Part shown: positions 1,705-22,151 of the stretch, piece after piece
Layout of the letters: each line of letters begins with the position of its first letter
Position numbering within the stretch: the first letter of the stretch is position 1
Assembly: GCA_029907515.1 (NCBI GenBank)
Contig: JARYLT010000022.1
Location: forward strand, 1 to 32,925
Length of the DNA: 32,925 nucleotides
Direction of reading: 5' to 3'
Source: Spirochaetota bacterium
GTDB taxonomy: Bacteria > Spirochaetota > UBA4802 > UB4802
Translations under genes and position numbers: made by a program
Notes under the pieces: model-generated
The model's input: the letters and a program-made list of their open reading frames with translations, nothing else
Told to the model about the DNA's origin: nothing
Database searches by the model: none

Positions 1705-3312
1705 ATGAAGATAATTATTACTGGCCCAAAAGGGGTGGGAAAATCAACCATTGGTAAGAGAATAGCTGAAATATTACATATACCTTTCTTTGAAACTGAT
1801 GAGATGATTGAATCTCTTTTTGAAGAAAAACATGGCAATAAAAAAAGTTGCAGGCAGATTGCAACTGATCATGGTGAATCATTTTTCAGAGAGCTTGAAA
1901 AAGAGGCAATTAAAAAAGCTGCGTTGTATGACTGGTGTATAATAGCTACTGGTGGCGGAGCAATGATATTTCCGGAAAACAGAATACAGCTTAGAAAAGA
2001 AAGTGTAATGATTTTATTGAAAGCTACAGTTGATTTTTTATGGCAAAGGATGCGGGTTACTGGAATCCCGCCATTTTTACAGGGAGACAATGCATTTGAT
2101 AAGTATAGCCAACGTGTTCAAAAAATATATGAAGCCACAGAACATATATGTGATATTATTTATACTGTAACAAAAGAAAATGAAGATACTGCTCATGAGG
2201 ATTTACTACAGCAGATATCTTTTGTATTATCACAATGTATGCATGGACCCAATACCTTTGGACAGGTTCTGAAGGTAACAACATTTGGTGAAAGTCATGG
2301 GAAAGCACTGGGGGCTGTTGTGGACGGGTTGAAACCCGGGATCCCATTATCTGCTGAAGACATTCAGAAACAGCTTGACAGGCGTAAACCAGGCCAAAGT
2401 TCTGTTAGCACCCAGCGGAAAGAAGCTGACAGTGTGGAAATTGTTTCTGGTTTGTTTGAAGGTAAAACAACAGGGACACCGCTGTGTATGATTGTGTATA
2501 ATAAAGATCAGGATTCCAGGGCTTATGAATCTATTAAAGATATATTCAGGCCTGGCCATGCAGATTTTACATTCTGGCAGAAATATGGTATACGTGATTA
2601 TCGAGGAGGAGGAAGGTCTTCCGGGCGTGAGACAGTGGGTAGAGTTGCTGCGGGAGCTATCGCCCTTAAAATGTTGAAAGAAAAAGGTGTAAGAATAGTG
2701 GCGTATGCTGAGGAAATTGCTGGCATAAAAGGAGAAAAAGTAGATATTGATTTTATAGAAAAAAATCCTGTGCGCTCTGCCGATCCGGATAAAGCTCATG
2801 CAATGGAACGGGCTATCAAACGGGCTCAGGCTGAACATGATTCTGTTGGCGGTATTGTTGCGTGTGTTGTTAAAGGATTGCCTGCGGGTTTGGGCGATCC
2901 GGTGTTTTGTAAGCTGGATGCGCGGCTTGCAATGGCTGTAATGTCAATTGGTGCAGTAAAGGGTGTTGAGTTTGGAAGCGGGTTTGCTGCTGCGCATAAG
3001 CGGGGCAGTGAAAATAATGACCAGATGAGTGATGGGAAATTTTTGACTAATAATGCAGGTGGTATTTTAGGTGGTATATCAACAGGGCAGGATGTTGTGA
3101 TGCGTATTGCAGTTAAGCCAACGCCCTCCATAGCAAAGTTACAGAAGACTATGAATATATATGGAAATACTGTTGATGTATCAATTAAAGGAAGGCATGA
3201 TCCCTGTATTGTGCCACGAATTATTCCAGTTGTTGAGGCAATGGTTGCTCTGGTGGTATATGATGCGTGGTTGCTTCAGGAGAGGATAGGGCGTTATGAC
3301 GGTACTGTATAA
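1705..3312 (+). CDS. aroK-aroC: Bifunctional shikimate kinase / chorismate synthase fusion
   Basis: One 535-residue frame encodes two enzymes of the shikimate pathway. Residues 1-170 are a shikimate kinase (shikimate + ATP to shikimate 3-phosphate): Walker A GPKGVGKST at 7-15, FR at 61-62, ATGGGAM at 81-87 and a LID-like GIPPFL. The usual DTD shikimate-binding motif reads ETD (30-32). From about residue 179 a full chorismate synthase follows (EPSP to chorismate, FMN-dependent): GESHGKALG at 195, RGGGRSSGRETVGRVAAGA from 300, and a C-terminal RHDPCIVPRIIPV. No stop or ribosome binding site lies at the join, and Met179 at 2239 has no Shine-Dalgarno, so this is a real fusion. GGAGG at 1687-1691 lies a rather long 13 bases from the ATG. 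The two enzymes are not consecutive: EPSP synthase (AroA) acts between them. Confidence 0.93.
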   Translation: MKIIITGPKGVGKSTIGKRIAEILHIPFFETDEMIESLFEEKHGNKKSCRQIATDHGESFFRELEKEAIKKAALYDWCIIATGGGAMIFPENRIQLRKESVMILLKATVDFLWQRMRVTGIPPFLQGDNAFDKYSQRVQKIYEATEHICDIIYTVTKENEDTAHEDLLQQISFVLSQCMHGPNTFGQVLKVTTFGESHGKALGAVVDGLKPGIPLSAEDIQKQLDRRKPGQSSVSTQRKEADSVEIVSGLFEGKTTGTPLCMIVYNKDQDSRAYESIKDIFRPGHADFTFWQKYGIRDYRGGGRSSGRETVGRVAAGAIALKMLKEKGVRIVAYAEEIAGIKGEKVDIDFIEKNPVRSADPDKAHAMERAIKRAQAEHDSVGGIVACVVKGLPAGLGDPVFCKLDARLAMAVMSIGAVKGVEFGSGFAAAHKRGSENNDQMSDGKFLTNNAGGILGGISTGQDVVMRIAVKPTPSIAKLQKTMNIYGNTVDVSIKGRHDPCIVPRIIPVVEAMVALVVYDAWLLQERIGRYDGTV

Positions 3313-4228
3313 CTTATCTGAGCGTGATGAAGTTTTTAAAAATCCTGTAATAACCATAGGAAGCTTTGATGGAGTCCATAGGGGACACAGGGCAATATTT
3401 GATCGTATGCTGGAATTAGCACAGTCATTACATGGGGAACCGGTAGTTTTTACATTCAGTGAACATCCGCGAAAACTTTTAACACCGCACACACCACCTA
3501 AGATATTAACGACTGCTACTGAAAAAATCCATGCAATTGAACAGGTTGGCATTAGCAATATTGTCATGATGCCATTTACCCATGAGATTGCAGCCCTCAC
3601 AGCAGAGGAATTTTTATATAAGATTGTATTTTACCATATAGGGAAAGCACATATTGTGGTAGGATATGACCATGCGTTTGGGAAAGGAAGGCAGGGAGAT
3701 TTTGAATTTTTAAAGGGTTTGTCATTACGTGAAGGGTTTTTGGTTGAGCGTGTTGAACCGGTTTGTATTCAGTCGCGTCCGGTTTCTTCATCATGGATAC
3801 GCACTGAGATTGAGGATGGAAATATCGCACTGGCAAATATGCTTTTGGGAAGGCCCTATACCTTGCGTGGTACTGTGGTTAAAGGGCAAATGCGTGGCCG
3901 GCTTTTGGGGTATCCTACAGCCAACATTACCCCCGATGACCCTGATAAGATAATTCCAAAAGATGGAGTGTATGCAGTCAGGGTACACATAAAAGGTATG
4001 CTGTATCATGGTATGCTTAATATTGGTACCAACCCAACATTTGAAAACACTGAACGAACAATTGAAGTTCATATATTTGATTTTGATGCAGATATATATG
4101 GCCAAGCTCTCGAAGTGTTTTTTATTGAACGCATTCGCGACGAAAAGCGGTTTGGTTCTGTTACTGAACTTAAGGAACAACTGCATAATGATAAACTGGC
4201 AAGTGAAAAAATATTATCTGGAAACTGA
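3296..4228 (+). CDS. ribF: Bifunctional riboflavin kinase / FAD synthetase
   Basis: RibF turns riboflavin into FMN and then FAD. This copy has 310 residues, the usual length. The N-terminal FAD synthetase (nucleotidyltransferase fold) shows GSFDGVHRGH at residues 22-31 and SSSWIRTEI, the counterpart of the ISSTxIR motif. The C-terminal flavokinase shows GRPYTLRGTVVKG and GYPTANI at 205-211, which binds Mg-ATP. The start overlaps the 3' end of the aro fusion by 17 bases and has GGAGAGG upstream, so translation is probably coupled. Placing FMN supply beside chorismate synthase, which needs reduced FMN, may be meaningful, but this is inference. Confidence 0.96.
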   Translation: MTVLYNLSERDEVFKNPVITIGSFDGVHRGHRAIFDRMLELAQSLHGEPVVFTFSEHPRKLLTPHTPPKILTTATEKIHAIEQVGISNIVMMPFTHEIAALTAEEFLYKIVFYHIGKAHIVVGYDHAFGKGRQGDFEFLKGLSLREGFLVERVEPVCIQSRPVSSSWIRTEIEDGNIALANMLLGRPYTLRGTVVKGQMRGRLLGYPTANITPDDPDKIIPKDGVYAVRVHIKGMLYHGMLNIGTNPTFENTERTIEVHIFDFDADIYGQALEVFFIERIRDEKRFGSVTELKEQLHNDKLASEKILSGN

Positions 4229-4230
4229 CC

Positions 4231-4821
4231 ATGCGCAGTAATCAGGAATTCTATACATATTTACAATATTCACTGTATGAAGCTATTGCATTTTTTAATT
4301 TCAGGATTTATATTTTTGGTAGTGAAAAAACAATTAAAGCAATTATGTTCGATAGTTACTGTGAAAAGGAGGTATTGAAAAGCATAATCAATTCAGCTCA
4401 CAAAGGTTTAACTCCTGCAATCAAACAAGCAATACATTTTTTTAGGCAGTATGAACGAAAGATATTTATACAACCTCCACAATGCGATTTATCCCTCTAT
4501 ACAAATAATGAGCAGAAAGTTTTGAAGGAATTACTTTTGATACAACCTGGCAATACCATATCGTATGGTGAACTTGCAGCACAATGCGGTTTTAATGGAG
4601 GAGCACGGTTTGTGGGGAATGTAATGGCAAGCAATATAATACCTGTTATGTTTCCCTGCCATAGAGTAATACGAAGTAATGGTGATACAGGCAATTACAG
4701 TGGTGGTATAAAGATAAAGGAGTTTTTACTTGCGTGGGAAAAAGAAAATGAAATTTCATCGTTAAACAAAGAACAATACATCACGCAGAGTATGCGAATA
4801 AAAAATAAATCTTACTGTTGA
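4231..4821 (+). CDS. ogt: Methylated-DNA--protein-cysteine methyltransferase
   Basis: This suicide repair protein moves alkyl groups from O6-alkylguanine to its own cysteine. The 196-residue protein has a weakly conserved N-terminal domain and the typical C-terminal DNA-binding domain (about 90-175) with GNTISYGELAAQCG. The catalytic PCHRV is at 142-146 (Cys143), followed by GDTGNYSGG. The start lies two bases after the ribF stop, making it the last gene of the aro operon. The C-terminal 25 residues are lysine- and serine-rich and beyond the normal fold. The 3' end overlaps the convergent RND gene by 10 bases. Whether it acts as Ogt or as the MGMT domain of Ada cannot be told, but no AdaA-type domain is present. 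Confidence 0.92.
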   Translation: MRSNQEFYTYLQYSLYEAIAFFNFRIYIFGSEKTIKAIMFDSYCEKEVLKSIINSAHKGLTPAIKQAIHFFRQYERKIFIQPPQCDLSLYTNNEQKVLKELLLIQPGNTISYGELAAQCGFNGGARFVGNVMASNIIPVMFPCHRVIRSNGDTGNYSGGIKIKEFLLAWEKENEISSLNKEQYITQSMRIKNKSYC

Positions 4822-7800
4822 GTATTTAAATTTTTTTGATAAGTATTGAATAAAATTGGTGTAATAATCAATATACATGCAAATGAACCACACAGCCCTG
4901 TTATTACTGTTAAAGCAAAACCCTGCCATAGATGACTTCCACCAGAAGAGATAACCAGTGGCAACAAACCAGATACAGTGGTTATTGTTGTTATCAGCAT
5001 TGGTTTGCTTCGATGCTGATTTATGGTTTGATAATCTTTGATCAGTAATAATTTCTTTTTTCTTGAAGATTTGATCGTTTGAATATAACTATCTGTCAAA
5101 AGTATTGAATTGTTAACCACAATACCGGTTAATACTACAAACCCCATAATGGTTGATATATTACACTGGATATTAAATATATATAATGCCCAGACTGCCC
5201 ATGTCCATGCTATTGGTATGGATACGATGATTATCCATGGTAGCATGAACGATTCAAATATAGAAGCTATTACCATGTACACTGAGACAATAGCTATGCA
5301 TATATAGATCACCATATAGATGATGGATTGCTTATGCAGTGCAAAGGTTTTGTCATATTCTATGTAATATCCATCGGGGAGGGATAATTGTTGAATGGTG
5401 TTGCAAAGAATTCTTTCCATTTTATACAGGGGAACCTTTGGAATAATGCTGATTGTTTCAGATCGCATCTTATCATGATGCCATACAGTGGTAACAATAT
5501 GTGATGTGGCAACTGTTGCAATATTCTTTAATGGAACAGCCTTATTATCCATAGGTAATACTATATCATTAATTTCATTAACAGTATACTGGTTATCTTT
5601 TATGCGTACATCAACTTCCCTGTCATCAATGTATTTGGTTATCACAGGACCATAGAAAAGATTTCTTATGTAATCGCCTGCATAGGCAATGGGAATCCCG
5701 GAGTATGCGCATTTCATTCTGTCAAATTGAATCAACACTTCGGGACGCTCATCTTTGAAATGATAGATAATATCTTCAACTGCTTTTGTTGCCTGCAATT
5801 GTTCAGCAAATCTATATGCTAACTGGCGAATAACTGGCACATCACTTCCTTTTATGATAACTTCAATGTTATTGCGAATAGTGCCACCTGTACTGGTAAA
5901 AATTAATGAAGTATCCAATGGAAGCTGTAAATGCCGTTTTATCATTTCACTGTCTATCGTGCCATCTGTATCAATAATAAAATCTGCATGTTCCTGTTGA
6001 ATTCGCGTTGAGATGTTGTTAATGGATGTAATATGCTGCAACTGCTTTTCTATATAAAAAGCAGCATTGGATGTTGTCTGTAATGATGAACCTGAGGGCA
6101 TTTCCAATCGTGCAAAGAGTTTATTTTGATCAGTAAAGCTAATATCTTCAACAGTAATGTTTGAGATTGGGATTATGGTGCTGATAAGTGCTAGCAGGAT
6201 TATGCCATAGAGTTTCTTTTGATTATTGAAAAAATATTCCATAGTTGAGTTAATATGGGTGATAGATACATATTTTTTGCATGTACCAAGAAACATTGCA
6301 ACTAATGTAATACGTGGAATATGCAGATTTAATCGTTGTATTATAGATAAATGGGATGATGGTAGTGGATGAAGTGCTGTCATACGTAAACACCAGGGTA
6401 CAAATATAACAGCCACTATCAGTGATGCAACTATAGCAACTATCACAGTGCCAGCTAACTGTATGAATAACGCAGTACTCTTTGTTCTTAATAGCAGCAC
6501 AGGAATAAATATCACTATTGTGGTTAAACTGGATGCAACCAGAGCTCTGGCTACCTGTTGCGTTGATGCTATAATGTGTTCATCGGGAAAGATTTTATCC
6601 TCTGGGTGTGAAAATATTTTTTCAATGACAATGATGCTATTATCAACAACCATACCTGTTGCAATGGCAATTGCAGAAAGTGTTATGACGTTAAGTGTTA
6701 CTCCACTAAAAAATAAATACATTGCTATGGCCATAAATGAAAATGGGATTGCAATAATAACCGAGATAGTAGCCTGTATATTTTTTATAAATATATAGAC
6801 CACCAGCATTGTAAGTACTATACCAGCTATACAGCTCATATACAGGTTGTGAAGTGCTCTTTGTATTTCTTCTGCACTATTATAAGTTATATGTGCAGTA
6901 ACTCCAGGTATAGAGCATTGGGACAGCATGCTGATAATGTGCTGTGATACATCTAAGGGATTAGCTGTACTTGTTTTATAGATATATAATGAAACCTGAT
7001 CCAGAGTATTGTATCGTGATAGTGAATCCTGTATACCCGCATAGTCTGTTACATGCGCTATTTGACCTAAACGCGTTAGTAAACCTCCATGTCCTGATAA
7101 TAGTGGCAGGTGTTTAATTTCATCCAGTGTAAAGAATCTGCTTTTAAGGTGCAATGCATAATCATTCATGGCATCATGCAGAATCCCGATGGAAGTAATA
7201 ACATTGTTTTTTTGGATTTGTTCTGTTATGCGTTGCAATGGTATATTGTGAGCAATACAATAATTATTATCAACAGTTACATGAATTTCACGCTTATTGC
7301 CTCCGCCTATCTCAATCTGAGAAACACCCTCAATGCGTTCAATATTTTTTTTATATATGCCTTCTGCAATATCACGCAGTTTGTTAAGGCTATGCTGTGT
7401 ACTTGATAACCCTATGACCATTATAGGTGAATAGTCATTCCCCTGAAGATATATCTCAGGTTCATTAACATCGTCTGGAAACATTGCACGCACAGGTTCT
7501 ATCTTTTCATGTATTTCATACACTTTAAATTGTAGATTGGCATCCTTTTCAAAGGTTATGTATATGCGTGCTTCGGTATCGTTGCTTGAAGAAACAATCT
7601 CTTCTATTCCGCCTATAGTGCTTATTGCATCTTCAAGTGGGTTGACAATTATCTCCTCAATTTTATAGGGGGATTGCCCAGGATACCGTACCACAATGGT
7701 TATGTCATGATTACCTGCATCGGGCAAAAGGGATGAAGGCAATGATGTAAATGCAAAAAAGCCTGTTGCCATGATTGCACAAAAAAGCATCAACGTTGTT

Positions 7801-7835
7801 ATTGTATGAGTTACAAAATGGTGTATTAATTTCAT
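4812..7835 (-). CDS. RND efflux permease, second of a pair
   Basis: This inner-membrane proton-driven exporter of the HAE/AcrB type has 1007 residues, somewhat shorter than AcrB. It shows the standard plan: TM1 near the N-terminus, a large periplasmic loop (about 35-330), TM2-6, a second periplasmic loop (about 555-840) and TM8-12. In TM4 the motif is GMVVDNSIIV with Asp398-Asn399 where AcrB has Asp407-Asp408. In TM10 it is VVNNSILL (Asn908-Asn909) where AcrB has the essential Lys940. This D-N/N-N pattern is shared with SwrC-type RND pumps. The start overlaps the preceding permease by four bases (ATGA). It is the last gene of the operon, and no terminator is visible where it meets ogt. Confidence 0.92.
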   Translation of the reverse strand: MKLIHHFVTHTITTLMLFCAIMATGFFAFTSLPSSLLPDAGNHDITIVVRYPGQSPYKIEEIIVNPLEDAISTIGGIEEIVSSSNDTEARIYITFEKDANLQFKVYEIHEKIEPVRAMFPDDVNEPEIYLQGNDYSPIMVIGLSSTQHSLNKLRDIAEGIYKKNIERIEGVSQIEIGGGNKREIHVTVDNNYCIAHNIPLQRITEQIQKNNVITSIGILHDAMNDYALHLKSRFFTLDEIKHLPLLSGHGGLLTRLGQIAHVTDYAGIQDSLSRYNTLDQVSLYIYKTSTANPLDVSQHIISMLSQCSIPGVTAHITYNSAEEIQRALHNLYMSCIAGIVLTMLVVYIFIKNIQATISVIIAIPFSFMAIAMYLFFSGVTLNVITLSAIAIATGMVVDNSIIVIEKIFSHPEDKIFPDEHIIASTQQVARALVASSLTTIVIFIPVLLLRTKSTALFIQLAGTVIVAIVASLIVAVIFVPWCLRMTALHPLPSSHLSIIQRLNLHIPRITLVAMFLGTCKKYVSITHINSTMEYFFNNQKKLYGIILLALISTIIPISNITVEDISFTDQNKLFARLEMPSGSSLQTTSNAAFYIEKQLQHITSINNISTRIQQEHADFIIDTDGTIDSEMIKRHLQLPLDTSLIFTSTGGTIRNNIEVIIKGSDVPVIRQLAYRFAEQLQATKAVEDIIYHFKDERPEVLIQFDRMKCAYSGIPIAYAGDYIRNLFYGPVITKYIDDREVDVRIKDNQYTVNEINDIVLPMDNKAVPLKNIATVATSHIVTTVWHHDKMRSETISIIPKVPLYKMERILCNTIQQLSLPDGYYIEYDKTFALHKQSIIYMVIYICIAIVSVYMVIASIFESFMLPWIIIVSIPIAWTWAVWALYIFNIQCNISTIMGFVVLTGIVVNNSILLTDSYIQTIKSSRKKKLLLIKDYQTINQHRSKPMLITTITTVSGLLPLVISSGGSHLWQGFALTVITGLCGSFACILIITPILFNTYQKNLNTQQ

Positions 7836-10800
7836 GGCCTGTCCTTAATTGCTAAACGTATGAAATGGGGCAGGCAGAGCATGATAAAACCTGTTCCTGC
7901 AATCATGCCGCCAATGATAGCAATAGCAAGTGGTGACTGAACATCAGCGCCTTCCTGTAATCCTAATGCCAGTGGTATAAGCCCACAAATGGTAGTAAGT
8001 GATGTCATTATGATTGGGCGCAGTCGCTGTGTGCAGGATTTTGCAATTGATACACATACATTGCTATTTTGGCGATAGTTATGAATAATAGTATCAAGAA
8101 GTAATATAGCATTATTCACAATAGTACCTATAAGAACGACTGCCCCCATGAGAGACATGATATTTATTGATTTTCCTGTGAAAAAAAGAAATATGAATGA
8201 TCCACATAAAGCAACAGGTACTGATGACATGATTAACAGTGGATAGAGAAGTGATTCAAATTGTGCGGCGATAATCATGTATATTAACACAATAGAAAGT
8301 ACAAGTATAGTATACAGCGATTGAAGTGATTCCTTTGTTTCTATCATTTCCTGTGATAAAACAAACGAAACACTTTGTTTTTTCTGCTTTTCCCACAGCC
8401 GTTGTAATTGTTCTATTGCTTTTTCCTGTGAAATGCTATTTGTTACAATATGAATGGGAATGCATCGCTGCTGATTGTTTCGTATAATTGACGAATATCC
8501 CTGTGAATTGGAAAGTGAAGCAATAGTATGAAGTAATGTACATGGAGCACCACCATGAGCCTGAATGGGTATCATTCCTATGTCATCTATACTGTCACGG
8601 AACCTGTGATCAAATCGAGTAACGATATCAACTTCATAATCTGATTCAGTGTATTTTCCCGAGTGTGTTCCATACACAGCAGTGTGTATATATGAAGCAA
8701 CATCCTGAAGTGTTAATCCAAAAGATGCTAACTTGTCAGTATCAGCCTGTATGGTAAGTTCAGGCTTGCCCTGTTTAATTTCGCTGGAACATTGTGTGAT
8801 CCATGGTTGTCCAGTACATTCACGTATAAATGCATCGGCAGCGGCACTAATATCTTCTAAAGAATCGCCTGTACAATTAATTGTTATATCACCACTACCT
8901 GCACGTAACACCTGTAAAAAATCAGTATTTGATGCATTATATTCAATGCAAACATCAGATGGAAGTTTAACATTGTTCTCTAAATATGTAATGCAATCCC
9001 TGGCATCTGCTCCATTGTGCAGTTGTACATGAATCTGGCCAATATTAGTATTCTTTTCCCTGCCAAAATATTCGGTGTAATCTTCGGGATTATAGCCTGC
9101 TGTTATCAATCGTTTGTCAATATCAGGATAGCGTTCCAACAATGAATCAATATATTGAAGCATATCAATTGTTTGCTGCAATGGGGTACCAGATGGTGCT
9201 TCCAATCTGATGGTACAATGACTCTGTGTTGTATCAGGCATCAGTGACCTGCCCATAATAATAGCTGCACATATTCCAAGCACAATAATACCGAAAGTTA
9301 TTGAGTAAATATATTTACTCTGTAAAAGTAGTGTATCAAGCAGCAAAAGGTATCTGTGTTCAATAGTGTGCAGCAATACATCTACTTTGTGGAAAAGTAC
9401 ATTACTATGAACTATCGCCACACTATGCTGTTGCTTTTTAGAATGATGAGCTACTTGTGAATGGATGGTGTGCAGTGCAGGGATAAGAAGCAATGCAACA
9501 AAAAGAGAAGCTAAAAGGGCGATAGTTACTGTAATTGCTAAATGCGCAAATAGGGCGCCGCCCAATCCCTTTATGAGTAGTAGTGGCAGAAAAATGACCA
9601 CACTGGTTAATGTAGATGCAATAAGTGATGGTGCGATGGTATATATGGCTTTCGGGAGTAATGTATTTTTTTCATTGGTAATGGATTCAATTACTACTAT
9701 GCCACAGTCAACAAGCATGCCCACGCATATGGTCAATCCGCCTAATGACATCATGTTGATATTAATGGAAAATATGTTCATGAAAAAGAAGGTAATGATA
9801 ATTGATACAGGTATTGCTATGGTAATAATGAGTGCTGAATAGAAACGCTTCGTGAAAAGGAGAAGAACAAAAAATGCAATGAAAGAACCAGCTATAGCAG
9901 ATGACACAACACTGGATATGGCACTGCGTATGTATTGCGACTGATCGCTGATTATATCAAATGATAATCTTCTGCGGTATTTTTTTTGCAGGTTGTCAAC
10001 AAGTTGGTGCGTCTTGCGGCACACCTCAACAGTGTTTTTGCCTGACTCTTTAATAATGGATAGGGTAACACAGGGATGACCATTAATAAATGACTGGCTG
10101 GTGATTTCTTTGAAGCCATCGATAACGCGGGCAACATGTTTTAAAAAGACTAAGCGGCCATCCTGGGTTTTCTTAACAGGAACATTTTCAATGTCACCAA
10201 TGTTTTTAAACTCACCTGCAGTTCGTATGAGAAGTTCTTTATTTCCTGTAATGAGGGTACCTGCAGGATAATTGTAGTGAGATGACTGTATACTATTGAT
10301 TATCTCATGTATTCCAGTATTGTATGCCTGCAGTGCATCACGGTTTACAAGTACTTCAATCTGGCGTACTTTGCCTCCTGTTACTTTAGCATTGCCAACT
10401 CCATCAATACGTTCAAAAAGTGGTACTATATTTTTTTCTGTTTCATAGCGCAGCTGTCGTAAATCCATATCCTGTGATGTAATAGCTATGTTCATAACTG
10501 GTAAAGAATTAGGATCAAAGCGTGTAACGATTGGCTTATAGACATCCTGAGGAAGGATACCTTTTACAAGATCAACTTTTTCGCGAACCTTTAAGAGAGC
10601 AAAATCAACATTGCTTCCCCATTGTAATGTGGCAACGACCAGGCTTGCGCCTTCAATTGATTCAGAATGTATACGCGTTACACCAGCGACGCTGTTAACT
10701 GCTTCTTCAACTGGTTTTGTAATAAGCTGTTCAATTTCCGATGGGGAAGCACCAGGATATAGTGTAATAATGGAAATCTCAGGATATTGTACAGGAGGCA

Positions 10801-10912
10801 GCAGATCCATGGTGAGGTTACACGCTGATATAATGCCAAAAAGGCACAGTGCGCTAAATGACATGATAATTGTTACAGGGCGTTGTACTATTAATGTTCC
10901 CATATAGTGCAT
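7832..10912 (-). CDS. RND efflux permease, first of a pair
   Basis: A 1026-residue RND transporter with the same twelve-TM, two-loop plan as its neighbour but clearly different sequence. It shows the family N-terminus (IVQRPVTIIM, then YPGASPSEIEQLITKPVEEA). The TM4 motif is GMLVDCGIVV with Asp402-Cys403, so the second acidic residue of AcrB is a cysteine. TM10 has IVNNAILLLD (Asn933-Asn934). Start and preceding stop share a base (TAATG), so translation is coupled; a second ATG at 10903 is possible. Two adjacent non-identical permeases resemble MdtB-MdtC, which form a heterotrimer, and the pair could do the same. A CGATAGTT-family DNA motif copy lies inside at 9519-9529. Confidence 0.92.
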   Translation of the reverse strand: MHYMGTLIVQRPVTIIMSFSALCLFGIISACNLTMDLLPPVQYPEISIITLYPGASPSEIEQLITKPVEEAVNSVAGVTRIHSESIEGASLVVATLQWGSNVDFALLKVREKVDLVKGILPQDVYKPIVTRFDPNSLPVMNIAITSQDMDLRQLRYETEKNIVPLFERIDGVGNAKVTGGKVRQIEVLVNRDALQAYNTGIHEIINSIQSSHYNYPAGTLITGNKELLIRTAGEFKNIGDIENVPVKKTQDGRLVFLKHVARVIDGFKEITSQSFINGHPCVTLSIIKESGKNTVEVCRKTHQLVDNLQKKYRRRLSFDIISDQSQYIRSAISSVVSSAIAGSFIAFFVLLLFTKRFYSALIITIAIPVSIIITFFFMNIFSININMMSLGGLTICVGMLVDCGIVVIESITNEKNTLLPKAIYTIAPSLIASTLTSVVIFLPLLLIKGLGGALFAHLAITVTIALLASLFVALLLIPALHTIHSQVAHHSKKQQHSVAIVHSNVLFHKVDVLLHTIEHRYLLLLDTLLLQSKYIYSITFGIIVLGICAAIIMGRSLMPDTTQSHCTIRLEAPSGTPLQQTIDMLQYIDSLLERYPDIDKRLITAGYNPEDYTEYFGREKNTNIGQIHVQLHNGADARDCITYLENNVKLPSDVCIEYNASNTDFLQVLRAGSGDITINCTGDSLEDISAAADAFIRECTGQPWITQCSSEIKQGKPELTIQADTDKLASFGLTLQDVASYIHTAVYGTHSGKYTESDYEVDIVTRFDHRFRDSIDDIGMIPIQAHGGAPCTLLHTIASLSNSQGYSSIIRNNQQRCIPIHIVTNSISQEKAIEQLQRLWEKQKKQSVSFVLSQEMIETKESLQSLYTILVLSIVLIYMIIAAQFESLLYPLLIMSSVPVALCGSFIFLFFTGKSINIMSLMGAVVLIGTIVNNAILLLDTIIHNYRQNSNVCVSIAKSCTQRLRPIIMTSLTTICGLIPLALGLQEGADVQSPLAIAIIGGMIAGTGFIMLCLPHFIRLAIKDRP
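9519..9529 (+). repeat. GCGATAGTTAC motif copy, in first RND gene
   Basis: An exact 11-mer on the strand opposite the gene. Read in the gene it encodes part of VTIAL. Confidence 0.7.
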
Positions 10913-12456
10913 TACATATTAAGATACATGGTAAACGGTTGTAGCATGTAATTGCCCACGCTATCCCTTATTCCATTGATGCCATGATTAATGGATAATC
11001 TGTAATATGATTGTGGAGTAAGATTAAACATATATATATCAACACAATCGGGATGATTAGTTGGTACTTCTATCTTCCATATTTTTGGGATAAGTGTTGA
11101 ACTTGATTGTGATGCAATCAGGCTAAATGATATAGCTTGCATTGCTGAGGGTAAATCCAGTGATGCAATAGTGGCCAGAGTATTTGTTGTATTGGTAAAT
11201 TGGATCCTGAATATCAAGACTGTAACATCAGTATTGTTTATGAGTTTGTAACATGAATATGGTGGTGCCGATTCGATGATATCATCATTTTCTAATAGAC
11301 GTGACAAACTATCATCAGCATTCCCATTGGAATCCCAACTTATCTGATATATATTTTTGCTATTATTACCATATGGAATAACTTCAATTGGTTGTGAATA
11401 TTGTGAATATATTTTAAAGGGGAAATTGTATACCTTATCAAGAGTATTGCCTGCTATGTCTTTGGCCTGTGAAGAAATAGTCAGAACATACGTTTGCATC
11501 AAATCTAATGGTGAAGAGGGTATTATACGAAGACTGTGATCATCTTCCCATGAAAAAAAGGTATTACAGGGAGGGGATATGCTGATACTTTCATTAGTAT
11601 CAATACGCTGCATAGCCTTTGAAAATCGTATAAGTACATCTGCATTTTTATCGATGCCTTCTGTTGTTGTGAAAGGCTGCAGTCGAACTTCTGTGCCGTT
11701 GTAATGAGCAAAACAGCCAACAGAATAATCAGGTGGCTCCATTGATTCCGGATTTAGAGTTGGAAGGGTAAAGTCAGTACCACATATAAAGATACTTTTA
11801 TATTCTTTTAATAAATGATTTCCTGCTATATCTACAATATCTGTTGATAGAGTAATGGTGTATGTTGTGCCATGAATATAGTTATTGTACGGTGTAAATA
11901 CTAGAGTAGAATTATCATTCAGCAGCGTAATATCACCAACAATGTATGGGGTAATTATAAAGCCTTTTTTTACTGAATCTAACCTGACTGCTTCAGAAAA
12001 TTGTACAATCAGTGGAGAAAATATGTCAGATACTCGTGCTCCATCCGCAGGTTGTATTGATACAGCTTCAGGTTTGATGAGGTCTATGCTTGTTGAAAAT
12101 GACGATGTGTAATCTTCTTTAAGGTTGTTGCCATGACTATCTTCCGCACTGGAGCGAATAATAATAGTATATACAGTTGCGTCTTTACAGTTTTCAATAA
12201 GGTCAAAAAAAAGTTTATTGTTTTCCCATCGGAAATGCCCCTTTGGCTGATGTTCTCCGCTAAAAGAAAAAGCTTCTTCGGTTTTTGGTCTATCCATTGA
12301 TTCAGAAAATTCTACGCAAATAACAGGTCTATCTTCTAAAACTACGGACCTGTTAGCAGGAGTTATGCTAATGACTTCTGGGGGGTCAATATCCACAAAA
12401 TAATTACAGGATACAATTGTAAGAGAAAGGAAAATTATGGTAAGAGATACTTTCAT
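10912..12456 (-). CDS. Ig-like (Big_5) lipoprotein in RND operon, copy 2
   Basis: A 514-residue secreted lipoprotein: signal peptide with lipobox IVSC (lipid-bearing Cys17) and then DIDPPEV. The mature part has at least three SbsA/Big_5-type Ig-like repeats, at about 22-125, 130-225 and 265-350. Each has a PPEV.SI.P start, an FSE.MD core, a T.Y.I.I strand and D..GN near the end. The C-terminal 150 residues form a more diverged module that ends IRDSVGNYM. It has no catalytic motif. AGGAG precedes the ATG at 12456. It sits between the adaptor and the first permease, so a structural or accessory role in the exporter is likely by context; the exact function is unknown. It is paralogous to the gene just upstream. 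Confidence 0.85.
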   Translation of the reverse strand: MKVSLTIIFLSLTIVSCNYFVDIDPPEVISITPANRSVVLEDRPVICVEFSESMDRPKTEEAFSFSGEHQPKGHFRWENNKLFFDLIENCKDATVYTIIIRSSAEDSHGNNLKEDYTSSFSTSIDLIKPEAVSIQPADGARVSDIFSPLIVQFSEAVRLDSVKKGFIITPYIVGDITLLNDNSTLVFTPYNNYIHGTTYTITLSTDIVDIAGNHLLKEYKSIFICGTDFTLPTLNPESMEPPDYSVGCFAHYNGTEVRLQPFTTTEGIDKNADVLIRFSKAMQRIDTNESISISPPCNTFFSWEDDHSLRIIPSSPLDLMQTYVLTISSQAKDIAGNTLDKVYNFPFKIYSQYSQPIEVIPYGNNSKNIYQISWDSNGNADDSLSRLLENDDIIESAPPYSCYKLINNTDVTVLIFRIQFTNTTNTLATIASLDLPSAMQAISFSLIASQSSSTLIPKIWKIEVPTNHPDCVDIYMFNLTPQSYYRLSINHGINGIRDSVGNYMLQPFTMYLNM

Positions 12457-12483
12457 AGTAAACTCCTATACATGAAACATTTC

Positions 12484-13923
12484 TTAATCCACTGGATGAA
12501 AATAAAATATATACCATACATCTTTCTGCATAGGTATGCCATTGCTTGACTTTATGCCGTCAGTGCCACCTTTAAACGTTAATTTGTATACATTTCCACC
12601 TTCAATTGCAGCGATAGTTAATTTCAATGTCTGGCTATCATCTATCCACCTGAATTGATTAATATTGCCATTTATTTCAGGTTGTTCACCATACAGGCAT
12701 TGGATTGTTACATTATCTGGTACAGAATTCCTGAGAATAGGTGCTGAAAAATGTACTGTAAACTCATAGGTGGTGTTTTCATTCGATTCATCACCTAAGT
12801 CAGTAACACTTAAAGGAGTTAGAGCTTTTTGTTCATGGATCAAGCATTCAAGGTTAGTAATTGATGGTATACTGGAAAGATTACCATTTGTTATAATATA
12901 TACACATAGATCATTGAGCAATGTGTTTTGAGCTACATCTTTTAGATTTGTATTAATACGTATTTCATATCTGGTGTTAACATCTAATGGTTGCGGGAAA
13001 TGAATAATACAGGTTTGATTTAAATTTCCCCAGTATGAATTCCAGGTGGACTGTGGTGAAATAATAAATGCTCTATTTATCGATGAAGTATCTATTGGTT
13101 CATTAAAAGTAATAATAATTTCATCGTTTATATTTGCTCCTTCATATATTGTAAAGTTTTCAGTTTGCGCCATATTTTGTGAAATTGAAGTTGTGTAGAG
13201 TCCTGTAATAACTGGACGTATATATTCACTACCTGTTCTGAACCTGCATGTTACAGGTTGTATCATCATGTTATGGGAAAGATCCTCGCATTTTGCTATA
13301 TCAATTTGATACCAGGTATTAAACAGTAACGGTTTGTAAGGAGTTAGAGTTAGTATGGTGTTTGCAGTATTCCACATGCTTGTATAATCAACCGAAGGTG
13401 ATAATCGTATATTTTTTTCAACTGAAGCGGTGTCCATGGGTTCGGAAAAAGCAATTGTTATGGATGTATTCAATGCTATATTTTCACTACAATCATCTGG
13501 TTGCAAAGATTCTATCTCTGGTGGGATTGTATCCAGTCCTATTGTAAAATTTGATATATGCTGGGTAACCAGAGTATTGTCATGAGTATCACATGCGGTT
13601 TTTTCAATAATAAGGCGATAGTAACCATTGCTAAGTGGCAATTCAGGTGTAAATGTCATTTCAGTGTCATTGTTGCTCCAGGCAAAATTTCCTTTTATGG
13701 AACTATCGCCATATTCACCATATAACAATACAAATGCCTTTTGTGTTTTATCCTTATTCATTGACTTAGAAAAACAAACGCTTACAGGGCATGATGATTG
13801 CACAATAGCGTTATGTGGTGGTGAATATGAAACAATTTCTGGTGGTGTTATGTCCACGCTACATGAAATCAAAGAAACCATACATGTGAAATGTAATAAC
13901 GCTTTCATAGATACCTTTACCAT
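12484..13923 (-). CDS. Ig-like (Big_5) lipoprotein in RND operon, copy 1
   Basis: A 479-residue paralogue of the following gene, with lipobox LISC (Cys21) and mature start SVDITPPEIVSYSP. Three Big_5 Ig-like repeats can be seen at about 25-130, 132-232 and 235-345 (FSKSMN, FSEPMD and FNEPID cores). A diverged C-terminal domain ends in GIKSSNGIP. The ATG at 13923 shares one base with the preceding stop (TAATG). A second ATG at 13908, five codons in, has AAAGG just upstream and gives a more ordinary signal peptide (MKALLHF), so it may be the real start. The role is unknown. Each copy has its own signal peptide, so the two are separate proteins, not one split gene. Confidence 0.83.
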   Translation of the reverse strand: MVKVSMKALLHFTCMVSLISCSVDITPPEIVSYSPPHNAIVQSSCPVSVCFSKSMNKDKTQKAFVLLYGEYGDSSIKGNFAWSNNDTEMTFTPELPLSNGYYRLIIEKTACDTHDNTLVTQHISNFTIGLDTIPPEIESLQPDDCSENIALNTSITIAFSEPMDTASVEKNIRLSPSVDYTSMWNTANTILTLTPYKPLLFNTWYQIDIAKCEDLSHNMMIQPVTCRFRTGSEYIRPVITGLYTTSISQNMAQTENFTIYEGANINDEIIITFNEPIDTSSINRAFIISPQSTWNSYWGNLNQTCIIHFPQPLDVNTRYEIRINTNLKDVAQNTLLNDLCVYIITNGNLSSIPSITNLECLIHEQKALTPLSVTDLGDESNENTTYEFTVHFSAPILRNSVPDNVTIQCLYGEQPEINGNINQFRWIDDSQTLKLTIAAIEGGNVYKLTFKGGTDGIKSSNGIPMQKDVWYIFYFHPVD

Positions 13924-15311
13924 TAATTGGTTTTTAATATTGGTTTTACTTTAGCTTTATCATATAAAAGCTTTATCTGTGAGTTTGCTATGATGTCGCC
14001 TTCCTGTAGCCCTTCAACCAATACTTCCTCATTCATTCTTTCTTTAATGGTGACTTTCTTTTCAAAGGCCATAGTATTTTTTATAATAAAGACACTGGAA
14101 CTATCGCTTTCTTTAAGAGATGTTGCAGGGATGCAAATAGCATCTGGTATTGTTTGTACATTGATAGATACACGGGCAAACATGCCAGGTTTCAGGCTAT
14201 TATCGATATTTGAACATATAATTTTCACATCTGCAGTTCGTGATGTCTGGTCAATTACAGGACTTATGATTTCAACCTTGCCAGAATATGTCTTATGTAA
14301 TGCATCGATGGTGATTTCAACTTTCTGGCCAGGTTGTATAGAAATCAGGTCAATTTCATTAAGCTGAGAGATGCAATATACCTTGGATGTGTTAATGATG
14401 ACAAAAAGATTGGTATCCTCACTTACCTTTTCGCCTATATCAATTGAACGTCCAGCAACAATGCCATCAATAGGTGATTTGATTGAAGCTTCGTTTATAT
14501 TGGTTTTGATTATATCTATCTGAGTTTTTGCCTGTTCAACCTGGCTTTTTGCTGCATCACATTCTGCTTGTTCCATTGCGGTATTTATTAATGTAAAAAG
14601 CTCATTCGTTTTTGATTCATCTTGCGGTTTGGTAAAACCAGCTTTGACAATATCACTATCTCTAAAACCTACAATCAGTGTTTCATAATCTTTCTTTGCC
14701 TGTAAAAATTGTGTCTTGACCGTATGATAATGAGTCCGCAATGTGTTGAGTTCTGTTTCGGTAACACCACCTGCTTTAAATAATTTCTCTTTTTTTCTGA
14801 GTATATCTTCTGTATTTTGAAGCGTTACATATTTATCAGTAAGTTCCAGTCGTGATTTTGCTATTGCTTTCAGGCGTTGTTCAACATTTCTTTTGGCCTG
14901 CAATAATTTCTCTTCAGCTAAGCGTAAATTTGCCTGAGCTTTTTTGAGCTCGGCTGTAGCTTCTTTAAGTTGCAATTCCAATGCATATGTTTCAATCTTT
15001 GCTAATAATTGTCCTTTTCTGACTTGCTTGCCCTGTTCTACAAATATATTTTCTACGCGGCCAAATATCTTGGATGAAATAATAGCTTTGTCTTTATACT
15101 GAACTGTTGCAATGCTGTTTACTTTTTTTGTTATTGTTTTTGCTTTTATTGTGAAGGTTTCAACCTGTATGGGCATTTCCTGTATTATTGTATCGTTATC
15201 CAAAGATAACGAAAGTATAGCATATGCTGTTGAGATAATTACGGACAGTAAAACTAATAAATAAATTTTTCTTTTATTTTCTCTGAGTAACGTAAAAAAG
15301 TCCATAATCAA
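13923..15311 (-). CDS. RND periplasmic adaptor (membrane fusion protein)
   Basis: This HlyD/AcrA-type adaptor links the RND permease to the outer-membrane channel. The 462-residue protein has one N-terminal TM anchor (about 16-36) and no lipobox. A first lipoyl half (GRVENIFVEQGKQVRKGQLLAKI, shown here in part as EQGKQVRKGQLL) is followed by a long coiled-coil hairpin (about 108-270). Then come the second lipoyl half (IKSPIDGIVAGRSIDIGEKV region), a beta-barrel domain and a membrane-proximal domain ending EGLQEGDIIA. The hairpin is longer than in AcrA, as in adaptors that reach a TolC tip directly. GGGAG sits eight bases before a TTG at 15311; an ATG at 15305 is the alternative. It follows the TolC gene by 21 bases. 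Confidence 0.93.
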   Translation of the reverse strand: MIMDFFTLLRENKRKIYLLVLLSVIISTAYAILSLSLDNDTIIQEMPIQVETFTIKAKTITKKVNSIATVQYKDKAIISSKIFGRVENIFVEQGKQVRKGQLLAKIETYALELQLKEATAELKKAQANLRLAEEKLLQAKRNVEQRLKAIAKSRLELTDKYVTLQNTEDILRKKEKLFKAGGVTETELNTLRTHYHTVKTQFLQAKKDYETLIVGFRDSDIVKAGFTKPQDESKTNELFTLINTAMEQAECDAAKSQVEQAKTQIDIIKTNINEASIKSPIDGIVAGRSIDIGEKVSEDTNLFVIINTSKVYCISQLNEIDLISIQPGQKVEITIDALHKTYSGKVEIISPVIDQTSRTADVKIICSNIDNSLKPGMFARVSINVQTIPDAICIPATSLKESDSSSVFIIKNTMAFEKKVTIKERMNEEVLVEGLQEGDIIANSQIKLLYDKAKVKPILKTN

Positions 15312-15332
15312 TTATATATCTCCCTCATATTT

Positions 15333-16688
15333 TTAAAATATGGATTCAATAGGCAGTCCAACGGCATTTTCTAATGCTGCCATTGATACAAAGACATCAG
15401 TTATTGTTTCCTGCAGCCTGAGACGTGCCTGCGAAAGTTCAACCAGTGTTTTTAACACATCATAGCGGGTGATATCACCTAAACGAGCCTGCTCATTTTC
15501 AATTGAAGATTGTTTTTCAAGAAGCAGTACGGTTTGCCTGGCTATTTCAACTTTTTTCAAAGACTCCATCACAGTATCATAAGCTTTTGAAACATCAGTA
15601 CGTATTATCTGAATAAGTTGCTGATGATACTTCTGCGCTTCAGTGTATGCTGCTTCAGCATCAATTATAGATCGTATAAACGATGGATTATCATAGACAG
15701 CAACAGATGCACTGGACTTTATGTCTGTAGCATTACCATTGTCTTTTTTTCCATATGAATTGCTCAGGGAAGCTGTGTTTCCAAAAAGTAAACTTGTTAC
15801 TGACAGACCAACATTCCACATTTTTTTATTCATGGGAAATTCTGTACCGCTATAACCGTAACTTGCAAAAAGTTGAATTCGTGGTAGATAGTAATACTGT
15901 GCCAGCTGGTATTCTTTTTGAGTTTTTATAAGTGTATAATAACTTTTCTTAAGTTCATTGCGATTTTGCATTGATAAGGATATCAGGTTTTCTTTACTTG
16001 CCATAGTGATGTTTTGTAGCTCAGCATATTCCTGCTCTGGCAATTGTATAGAAGCATAGTTAATACCTAAAGTGGTAGCAAAATCCTGCAATGAATTGGC
16101 ATATTGATTTTGTGCGCTGAGAATATTGTACTGTGCTTCAGCAATTTTCCCATCAACCTGTATCAGCTCAAGCTCTGTGGCCATACCTAATTGTTGTTGT
16201 GCAGTAATGATGTTTTTTTGTAACTGGAGGCTTTTTAAAAGAAGCTGATAGATTTCAATTGATTTTCTCTTTTTTTGTAGAGCAAAGTATGCCTGTTTAG
16301 TTAAAAGAATAATATTATTTTTTTCTATGGTATATTCTTCATTTGCAAGCATAGATTCAATCTGTGCTATTGAATATGCAATTAACGATTGTTGGTTTGT
16401 AAAAATATCATATTGTACTGTACATGCAAGCGATTGAAAACGTGTATCATCTTCTCTAATGGCAACAGTATCGCTTTTTGAATATTGAAAAGAAACATTA
16501 GGAAGCAACTCACGCCATCGTTCGTGTACAATCATACGTGATGATTGAATCTTTGCTTTTAGCCTTTCAAGCTTTACACTGTTTTTCAATGCTAACTCGC
16601 ATGCATTGTGCAATGTCAGTGTTTCCTGACTCCATGCAGAACAGGTTCCAATGATGTAAACTGCAAAAATGCAAAAACACTTTTTCAT
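15333..16688 (-). CDS. TolC-family outer membrane channel
   Basis: A 451-residue outer-membrane efflux protein. The signal peptide probably ends at AWS-QE (residue 20). Cys16 follows IGT, which makes a lipobox less likely. The mature protein has two OEP repeats with long amphipathic helices: LTLHNACELALKNS, then a repeat ending in RYDVLKTLVELSQARLRLQE and NAVGLP, both typical of TolC/OEP families. As a trimer it would form the exit duct for the two RND pumps. The ATG overlaps the stop of the preceding lipoprotein gene by four bases (ATGA). A stretch near 300-330 rich in Ser, Gly and Asn probably lies in an exposed loop. Confidence 0.92.
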   Translation of the reverse strand: MKKCFCIFAVYIIGTCSAWSQETLTLHNACELALKNSVKLERLKAKIQSSRMIVHERWRELLPNVSFQYSKSDTVAIREDDTRFQSLACTVQYDIFTNQQSLIAYSIAQIESMLANEEYTIEKNNIILLTKQAYFALQKKRKSIEIYQLLLKSLQLQKNIITAQQQLGMATELELIQVDGKIAEAQYNILSAQNQYANSLQDFATTLGINYASIQLPEQEYAELQNITMASKENLISLSMQNRNELKKSYYTLIKTQKEYQLAQYYYLPRIQLFASYGYSGTEFPMNKKMWNVGLSVTSLLFGNTASLSNSYGKKDNGNATDIKSSASVAVYDNPSFIRSIIDAEAAYTEAQKYHQQLIQIIRTDVSKAYDTVMESLKKVEIARQTVLLLEKQSSIENEQARLGDITRYDVLKTLVELSQARLRLQETITDVFVSMAALENAVGLPIESIF

Positions 16689-17149
16689 TTTTTAACAACC
16701 ATAGCGTCAATTTCTTTAGCGATAGCTTTGGCTATCAGTGCCTGGTCAAAACTTTCCTGCAAGCGACAGCTTTGTGAAATAATCCGTATGCTAGCAATAT
16801 GCATTGATGCATCGTTGATGAATATAAAAAGTGAAGCATTTTCCACCTGATTGAAAATATCGCCAGTTTTAGTGATGAAAATATCAACAGTAGCTGTATA
16901 TTTGAAATCCTGTTCGCGATATATGGGATTAAAATATGAAGCAGCTTTGAGATTATACTTTTGCAGATGAAAAACAATATGAGAAACTAATGAATCCTTT
17001 ATGGTGCTATATAGCTCATTGTGAATGCGCACGTCTTTGATAAAAATTGAATCATTAGCAAATGGAGCATGCTGAACTGTTTGAATATCTAAAGACTTGC
17101 ATGCAGTAAAAAATACAAGGGCAGATACCATAATCATAAGCTTTTTCAT
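16685..17149 (-). CDS. Small lipoprotein of the RND operon
   Basis: A 154-residue predicted lipoprotein: signal peptide with lipobox FTAC (Cys17), mature start KSLDIQTVQHAPF. I do not recognise a family. The order of a PFAND-like strand, a helix (LYSTIKDSLVSHIVFHL), then beta strands and a C-terminal helix resembles the small alpha/beta fold of LptE or CsgG-like envelope lipoproteins, but this is only a resemblance. Its ribosome binding site (GGAG) lies in the last codons of the TPR gene, two bases before which it starts, and its stop overlaps the TolC start. Strong coupling suggests a channel-assembly or accessory role. Confidence 0.75.
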   Translation of the reverse strand: MKKLMIMVSALVFFTACKSLDIQTVQHAPFANDSIFIKDVRIHNELYSTIKDSLVSHIVFHLQKYNLKAASYFNPIYREQDFKYTATVDIFITKTGDIFNQVENASLFIFINDASMHIASIRIISQSCRLQESFDQALIAKAIAKEIDAMVVKK

Positions 17150-17151
17150 AG

Positions 17152-17736
17152 TTACTCTCCATTTGTTGAATCATCAAATTGCTTGATGGCTTCAAGGATT
17201 GCCTGGTGCTTTGCAGCACGTTCAGGCAGATGTATCTCGCTATATATTTCCTGTAATTGTCTGTGTATTTGCATGAGCGGGAAATAGTTGGCAAAAGCTC
17301 TGTGGAATGTTATAATAGCATCATCATACTGTTTATTTGTATACTGAATAGTGCCCAGAAGATATAATGCAACAGGATCATTGGGAGAATGCAGAAGTGC
17401 TTTTTCAAGATATCTGATTGCCTGATCTTGTTTCTGGTTTCTTATAAACCATCGTGCATACAGAATATATCCCTGAGAACTATCGGTTAACCGGATATAC
17501 TTTTCTATTGTTTTTTCAAAATTGCTATTATTGGTAAAAAAGTATATCTTTGCTAAAAGCAAATATGAATCAGATAAATCTGCTTTTTTTATTGATTCCA
17601 GGCATAAAGTACTTGCACCTTCAAAATCTTTGTTTGCATAACGTGTAAGTGCTTTGTTATACAATTCTTTTGCATGATTGGTATTGCTACAAGCAATGTA
17701 GAACAAAAGTACTATTATACTGGTAAATGTTCTCAT
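17152..17736 (-). CDS. TPR-repeat lipoprotein of the RND operon
   Basis: A 194-residue lipoprotein with lipobox YIAC (Cys16) and mature start SNTNHAKELYNKAL. The rest is made of about four tetratricopeptide repeats (22-185), clearest in QAIRYLEKALLHSPNDPVALYLLG and the next unit QYDDAIITFHRAF (given here as separate short pieces of a continuous helical array). TPR lipoproteins are protein-protein scaffolds on the periplasmic face of a membrane. Its ATG shares one base with the stop of the upstream gene (TAATG). Context suggests it organises the exporter or its lipoproteins. A CGATAGTT-family copy lies at 17478-17485. Confidence 0.82.
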   Translation of the reverse strand: MRTFTSIIVLLFYIACSNTNHAKELYNKALTRYANKDFEGASTLCLESIKKADLSDSYLLLAKIYFFTNNSNFEKTIEKYIRLTDSSQGYILYARWFIRNQKQDQAIRYLEKALLHSPNDPVALYLLGTIQYTNKQYDDAIITFHRAFANYFPLMQIHRQLQEIYSEIHLPERAAKHQAILEAIKQFDDSTNGE

Positions 17737-18515
17737 TATTCACCTTTGATATTTGATAGTAGTGTTGTTACAGCCAATGCTATAAGCTGTTGTTTGTGCA
17801 GTTCGCTGTCTATACTGGAATCATAGTATTTACTGAAATTGTCAGACAACGATATGGTAGGATTGGTGCTTATCCATTGTTTCATCTTATTTGAATAAGA
17901 ATAATTGCTTGTTAGCGTAAAGTAAACTTCAGGTCTGGTTAACAGCTTCTTTTGTTGAAATAAGTCAAATGATGTTAAACGAACACTACCACGCCACACA
18001 ATCACATTATGAACAGAAATACTTGCGTTAATTTCAGCAAAATAGTAATGATAGGGATAGATTGCTGTAATATCCGAATGTTTGTGCGATACCGATAGAG
18101 TTTCAGATATTTTCTCAATACGGAGTGTGTCGATTATTAACGATGGATGTTGGTTCTGCTGTTTAGTATCATCAAACAGAGTAATCGTTCTATTTTCATT
18201 GATTATTTGAATTCCCTGCTGTAATAATGCTTTCTGTATTTCATTATTCCATAGAATGAGTTCCTTTTTATCACTTGAATCATTATCATCATTGTTCACA
18301 TATGTAACAGTGATAGTATCTGGAATAATGAACCCAGATGGTGGGCTCATGCGTTCTACGGTGTGAAGTTTATTGTAATTATCAATAGCATATACCTCTG
18401 TTATACTGTTAGCCTGTGGTTTTGGTGGGATAGTTGCTGTTGTACACGAAATACAAAAAATAATTATTGTTATAAAAGTTGTAATAATTAACATTTTAAA
18501 CGAAATGTGTATCAT
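17736..18515 (-). CDS. Lipoprotein, first gene of the RND operon
   Basis: A 259-residue predicted lipoprotein. The hydrophobic leader is long and Ile-rich and ends in CISC (Cys24); the mature part starts TTATIPPKPQ. No family is recognised. Its features are a helix LWNNEIQKALLQQGIQII, a beta-rich middle (SLIIDTLRIEKISETLSV, EINASISVHNVIVWRG) and a C-terminal helix HKQQLIALAVTTLLSNI. Together these recall auxiliary lipoproteins of transporters and LptE/CsgG-like folds, with low certainty. AGGGG lies about eight bases before the ATG. It is the promoter-proximal gene of the nine-gene operon. Confidence 0.75.
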   Translation of the reverse strand: MIHISFKMLIITTFITIIIFCISCTTATIPPKPQANSITEVYAIDNYNKLHTVERMSPPSGFIIPDTITVTYVNNDDNDSSDKKELILWNNEIQKALLQQGIQIINENRTITLFDDTKQQNQHPSLIIDTLRIEKISETLSVSHKHSDITAIYPYHYYFAEINASISVHNVIVWRGSVRLTSFDLFQQKKLLTRPEVYFTLTSNYSYSNKMKQWISTNPTISLSDNFSKYYDSSIDSELHKQQLIALAVTTLLSNIKGE

Positions 18516-21625: not shown

Positions 21626-21644
21626 ATACTTGCTCCTCATTAAA

Positions 21645-22121: not shown

Positions 22122-22151
22122 ATACAACCTCCTTTAATTATAAATATACAC

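What the first reader, a model, noticed from the sequence alone, without database searches (positions are those of the whole stretch)
4812..18515. Nine-gene RND exporter operon with five lipoproteins
The order is lipoprotein, TPR lipoprotein, small lipoprotein, TolC channel, adaptor, two Ig-like lipoproteins, RND, RND. Junctions are 1-nt TAATG overlaps, 4-nt ATGA overlaps or gaps of 27 bases or less, so the genes are co-expressed. Known tripartite RND operons have pump, adaptor and channel. Five additional lipoproteins coupled in translation suggest a larger, so far undescribed envelope complex. It could export a lipid, polysaccharide or lipoprotein rather than a drug.
Basis: partly seen in the sequence, partly recalled or inferred. 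Interest (0 to 1): 0.72.

Follow-up and report, generated by a model that had tools for sequence, protein, structure and literature searches.

The report
Spirochaete pump operon with four lipoproteins
A two-pump export system in an uncultured spirochaete carries lipoprotein genes that stay with it across much of the spirochaete phylum and are missing beside ordinary pumps, so spirochaetes probably build a larger, so far undescribed version of a well-known export machine.

Summary
A core of eight genes (TPR lipoprotein, small lipoprotein, TolC, adaptor, two Big_5 Ig lipoproteins, RND1, RND2) recurs in about 50 clusters from 24 families of the phylum, including Leptonema illini, Spirochaeta smaragdinae and Treponema caldaria. 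Only the first gene (L1) is local (three families). Every primary cluster without a neighbouring Ig gene is cut by a contig end. None of 42 other RND loci, nor this genome's three other RND operons, has the Ig or small lipoproteins. RND1 is monophyletic (support 0.99) and its distances track RND2's (rho 0.93). So this is an ancient, specific RND system, not a chance run of genes. TolC is mostly non-lipidated while its partners are lipoproteins; the small lipoprotein weakly resembles PelC, GNA1162 and LpoB. That suggests a lipoprotein collar on TolC, comparable to YbjP or to PelC with TPR domains. Physical assembly and substrate remain unshown. No description was found in the open-access library.

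The parts
17736..18515 (-). L1: 259-aa lipoprotein-like protein, first gene; no known family; lineage-specific
   Evidence: no Pfam/NCBIfam hit; found only in f1, f5 and f6/g12
17152..17736 (-). TPR lipoprotein (194 aa)
   Evidence: Pfam TPR; at the head of most clusters in the phylum
16685..17149 (-). L3: small lipoprotein (154 aa), weakly PelC/GNA1162/LpoB-like
   Evidence: profile links across the phylum (hhalign 96-97% between tiers); weak hits to PelC, GNA1162, LpoB
15333..16688 (-). TolC-family outer-membrane channel
   Evidence: Pfam OEP E=2e-44; no typical lipobox
13923..15311 (-). RND periplasmic adaptor (membrane fusion protein), N-terminal membrane anchor; start TTG or the ATG 6 nt downstream
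   Evidence: TIGR01730 193.6 bits, above its cut-off of 94.9; orthologues in 81 of 393 phylum genomes
12484..13923 (-). Ig1: lipoprotein with Big_5 Ig-like domains
   Evidence: Pfam Big_5 E=1e-43, 4 stretches
10912..12456 (-). Ig2: lipoprotein with Big_5 Ig-like domains
   Evidence: Pfam Big_5 E=3e-45, 3 stretches; Ig genes in 48 of 55 clusters, the 7 without being 3 cut by contig ends and 4 divergent paralogous loci
7832..10912 (-). RND1 permease
   Evidence: ACR_tran E=1.6e-206; 50 of 50 orthologues in one clade, support 0.992; D407/R971/T978 equivalents kept
4812..7835 (-). RND2 permease, paired with RND1
   Evidence: ACR_tran E=8e-151; distances track RND1, rho 0.93; relay residues kept

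Best explanation
This is a spirochaete RND export system in which a heteromeric RND1/RND2 inner-membrane pump, an adaptor and a non-lipidated TolC work with four dedicated lipoproteins. Shown here: the eight genes are kept together, in nearly the same order and tightly spaced, across the phylum; the accessory genes are specific to this RND lineage; both pumps keep residues expected for proton coupling. Inferred: RND1 and RND2 form a mixed trimer as MdtB and MdtC do; the adjacent TPR and small (PelC/LpoB-like) lipoproteins sit at the outer-membrane end of TolC as a collar that anchors or recruits it; the two Ig lipoproteins are elongated struts between the outer membrane and the adaptor-TolC conduit. 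The pump would take an amphiphilic compound from the periplasm or the outer leaflet of the inner membrane and send it out through TolC. The substrate is a guess.
For: Synteny in 24 families; Ig genes in every primary cluster that is not cut by a contig end; 0 of 42 control RND loci with Ig or L3 and plain RND operons elsewhere in the same genome; RND1 monophyly; correlated distances among all parts, RND1-RND2 0.93; relay residues; small lipoprotein recognised across the phylum, including about 15 clusters not used to build the profile; TolC without lipobox but partners with one. Precedents: YbjP lipoprotein on E. coli TolC pumps (PMC13082787, PMC13095208), PelC ring on TPR domains (PMC12141448), heterotrimeric MdtBC (PMC8277102).
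Against: No structure or interaction was shown; models of L1 and L3 were too poor. The L3 fold hint is below significance (E 0.09-0.4). Distance correlation partly reflects shared inheritance. Ig position varies (before RND1 or after RND2). Some clusters have no recognised L3 (f17, f31, f45, a few others). A congener, G017, had no adaptor match at the strict cut-off, so the system is not essential in the genus. YbjP is not needed to offset TolC's missing lipid in E. coli (PMC13082787).
Confidence: 0.55

Rival explanations
1. An ordinary MdtABC-like multidrug pump whose lipoprotein genes are merely co-expressed, for example envelope-stress proteins made under the same conditions, and do not touch the pump.
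For: Pumps, adaptor and channel are complete without the lipoproteins; no physical interaction was shown; Ig position varies.
Against: Four lipoprotein genes stay with one RND lineage across the phylum but are absent beside other RND pumps, including those of the same genome.
Confidence: 0.25
2. A polymer or glycolipid exporter: the TPR and PelC-like lipoproteins guide a polysaccharide or lipid to the channel, as PelB TPR and PelC do.
For: The TPR gene and the PelC-like small lipoprotein gene are adjacent in most clusters and coupled to an outer-membrane channel; PelC packs on PelB TPR domains (PMC12141448).
Against: No polymer-making gene is conserved beside the operon; the PelC similarity is below significance; occurrence in both Leptonema and Treponema, which differ in LPS (general knowledge), argues against an LPS-type cargo.
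Confidence: 0.1
3. The Ig lipoproteins are the cargo: the pump moves lipoproteins to the cell surface.
For: Two large Ig lipoproteins are encoded in nearly every cluster; spirochaetes display many lipoproteins (general knowledge).
Against: RND-TolC conduits are not known to carry folded or acylated proteins; the TPR and small lipoproteins are conserved as well; the Ig sequences evolve in step with the pump like subunits, though cargo could too.
Confidence: 0.05

Closest known systems
MdtABC-TolC (E. coli), heteromeric RND tripartite pump
   Same: Two different RND permeases encoded in tandem with an adaptor; used with a TolC channel
   Different: No lipoprotein genes in the Mdt operon (general knowledge); scores far below the MdtB and MdtC model cut-offs; Asn at the D408 and K940 positions of RND2 and at K940 of RND1
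BesABC (Borrelia burgdorferi)
   Same: RND, adaptor and TolC-like genes in one spirochaete operon
   Different: One RND and three genes only (PMC2279261)
TolC-YbjP lipoprotein partnership (E. coli AcrABZ and MacAB pumps)
   Same: A lipoprotein serves a non-lipidated TolC
   Different: YbjP is a DUF3828 protein; no DUF3828 hit here; four lipoproteins rather than one, and co-encoded with the pump
PelB-PelC exopolysaccharide exporter
   Same: TPR domain plus small lipoprotein next to an outer-membrane channel; weak profile match of L3 to PelC
   Different: PelB is a beta-barrel fused to its TPRs; no RND pump or adaptor; the match is not significant

Membership tests
RND tripartite export system | RND permease, adaptor and TolC-family channel encoded together | tested here: met
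   Pfam and NCBIfam scans
RND tripartite export system | Proton-relay residues in the permease (AcrB D407, R971, T978) | tested here: met
   Kept in the window's RND1 and RND2 and in most orthologues
HAE-1 drug pump of the AcrB type | Asp-Asp pair and Lys at AcrB 407/408/940 | tested here: not met
   D-C/N-N in RND1 and D-N/N-N in RND2; 40 of 58 control RNDs share the D-N-N pattern
MdtB/MdtC equivalogs | NCBIfam equivalog cut-offs (1584 and 1774 bits) | tested here: not met
   262-327 and 304-313 bits
Heteromeric RND pump (MdtBC-like) | Two permeases assemble in one trimer | not testable with these tools
   Only indirect: constant pairing and rho 0.93
YbjP (DUF3828) TolC partner | DUF3828 domain | tested here: not met
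   No such hit for L1, L3 or L3 relatives
PelC/GNA1162/LpoB lipoprotein fold group | Significant profile or fold match | tested here: inconclusive
   PelC, GNA1162, LpoB and DUF4136 hits all below significance; structure model too poor
Phylum-wide eight-gene RND cluster (defined here) | TPR lipoprotein, small lipoprotein and two Ig lipoproteins beside an orthologous adaptor and RND pair | tested here: met
   Window and about 50 clusters in 24 families

The most novel reading that the evidence does not exclude
The four lipoproteins are obligate structural subunits of a trans-envelope machine with seven or eight kinds of protein, with a TPR/PelC-like collar around TolC and Ig struts across the spirochaete periplasm, built to export a spirochaete envelope amphiphile rather than drugs.
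Probability: 0.3. Interest if true: 0.78.

Novelty: new variant of a known kind. Interest (0 to 1): 0.6.

Why it matters
Tripartite pumps have been described as three-part machines; YbjP, reported in 2026, was presented as a missing lipoprotein partner of TolC. Here much of a phylum has four lipoprotein genes tied to one RND pair, preserved over very deep divergence but absent from other RND operons. That gives a genetically defined test of what lipoproteins do for TolC pumps. It may have gone unnoticed because the best-studied spirochaetes seem to lack it: T. pallidum is described with one AcrB homologue and one adaptor (PMC8407342), B. burgdorferi with BesABC only (PMC2279261). The cultured environmental species named here make it testable.

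Tried and rejected
L1-L3 homology: no support (hhalign 4-14%). Downstream genes (metG, unknowns) are not conserved neighbours and gave no substrate clue. Promoter and terminator scans found fewer sites than shuffles and were not used. LPS-specific export was set aside because the cluster occurs in both Leptonema and Treponema. Literature searches found no description of the cluster; the held library is open-access only.

Full report
Observation. Domain searches confirm two ACR_tran permeases, an RND_mfp adaptor above its cut-off, an OEP channel, TPRs, and three to four Big_5 stretches in each Ig protein; L1 and L3 have no family. All five extra proteins have a lipobox-like site. The window belongs to a 3.49-Mb, 98.6%-complete genome.

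Is it more than chance? I searched the class with L1 and relatives with RND2, then 393 genomes of the phylum with profiles of the adaptor (81 genomes at E <= 1e-70) and of L3 (34 genomes), fetched 60 regions, and annotated them with profiles of the nine families. The cluster TPR - small lipoprotein - TolC - adaptor - Ig - Ig - RND1 - RND2 recurs, with overlapping or near-abutting genes, in 24 families. In some families (f2, f4, f6, f7) the Ig pair lies after RND2 instead. L1 is found only in f1, f5 and f6/g12.

Numbers. Of 55 clusters, 48 have at least one Ig gene beside the RND/adaptor genes; the seven without are three clusters cut by contig ends (G008, G009, G011) and four loci of a divergent paralogous type in f34. 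In that type, and in G082, RND1 has Asp at the K940 position and lacks R971, and RND2 has lost the relay. With a wider L3 profile, small lipoproteins are recognised in most primary clusters, including about 15 not used to build the profile; f17, f31, f45 and a few others have no recognised L3 in the fetched region.

Controls. Among other RND loci from the collection, 42 have at least 5 kb on both sides: none has an Ig or L3 gene nearby, 17 have a TolC. The window genome's three other RND operons are plain: two have channel and adaptor hits beside the permease, none has Ig, TPR or L3. Of seven other spirochaete RND loci checked, six lack Ig lipoproteins (one of them has a marginal L3-profile hit 2 kb away, L252) and one proved to be a second cluster with Ig genes (G058:C10). 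So the accessory set is specific to this RND lineage.

Named carriers. From memory only, 2,472,645 and 3,855,671 bp fit S. thermophila DSM 6192 (L214) and T. azotonutricium ZAS-9 (L222).

Evolution. In a tree of 151 permeases, all 50 RND1 form one clade (support 0.992) apart from 58 controls. RND2 is a longer-branched set that falls outside the RND1-plus-control group, but with weak support (one 'control', L038, is the RND2 of G055 itself). Pairwise distances correlate between all parts (rho 0.53-0.93; 0 of 300 permutations as high), most strongly RND1-RND2 at 0.93. Part of this is shared inheritance and longer alignments, so it shows that the parts travel together, not that they touch.

Mechanism. 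Both permeases keep the equivalents of AcrB D407, R971 and T978, with Asn at K940, the pattern of 40 of 58 control RNDs, so both are probably proton-driven. Strict pairing suggests a mixed trimer as in MdtBC (PMC8277102). TolC N-termini mostly look like ordinary secretion signals, whereas TPR, L3 and Ig proteins carry lipoboxes. In E. coli a lipoprotein, YbjP, binds non-lipidated TolC in complete pumps (PMC13082787, PMC13095208). The L3 profile has only weak PDB hits, but of the ten listed three are PelC chains (5t10, 5t11, 9h80; the first two are, to my knowledge, the Paraburkholderia PelC crystal structures) and one is GNA1162, and single members hit LpoB and DUF4136 in Pfam; from general knowledge these share one lipoprotein fold group. 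PelC rings contact TPR domains of their channel (PMC12141448), and here the TPR and L3 genes are adjacent in most clusters. I therefore infer a TPR-L3 collar at the outer-membrane end of TolC and Ig lipoproteins as struts. These placements are inference. The predicted structures were too poor to help.

Substrate. No biosynthetic gene is conserved next to the cluster. The cluster occurs in lineages with and without LPS (general knowledge of Leptonema and Treponema).

Novelty. BesABC in Borrelia is a three-gene operon (PMC2279261), and T. pallidum is described with one AcrB homologue and one adaptor (PMC8407342). No paper in the held library describes the eight-gene cluster, though subscription literature is not covered and searches outside the phylum were limited. 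I rate it a new variant of a known kind.

Noticed in passing
window 1705-3312 (+): One 535-aa gene fuses an N-terminal shikimate kinase to a chorismate synthase (Pfam SKI E=1e-28, Chorismate_synt E=1.5e-142).
   Followed up: partly
window 21017-22127 (-): Two adjacent, mutually similar small genes (207 and 160 aa, the first lipoprotein-like) without any Pfam family; conserved as a pair in the close relative G016 (L046).
   Followed up: no
window 28879-31503 (-): An 874-aa protein joins FlgD-type Ig and CHU_C-like domains to a C-terminal OmpA domain, probably an envelope protein.
   Followed up: no
L206, L208, L211, L232, L233: A divergent paralogous RND1-RND2 type: RND1 has Asp at the K940 position and no R971, and RND2 has lost the proton relay, as if one permease were inactive; Ig genes are absent beside four of these five loci.
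   Followed up: partly
L224 (G012:C82) and L050 (G012:C84): Genome G012 has two sets of lipoprotein-TolC-adaptor-Ig-Ig genes; one has no RND genes beside it, the other faces its RND pair from the opposite strand.
   Followed up: no
L052, L055, L057, L058, L065 (gene after RND2): A further small gene of 158-181 aa, often lipoprotein-like, lies between RND2 and the Ig genes in families f6 and f7; one was scanned and has no Pfam family.
   Followed up: no
L210 (Leptonema illini) 2020-4541: Four lipoprotein-like genes in a row precede the TPR gene; the last is L3-like, the third matches the sulfatase-modifying factor (FGE) domain.
   Followed up: partly
L218 (G058:C33) 3490-5928: A clostripain-family (C11) peptidase gene with Ig domains sits between adaptor and Ig genes of one cluster.
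   Followed up: no
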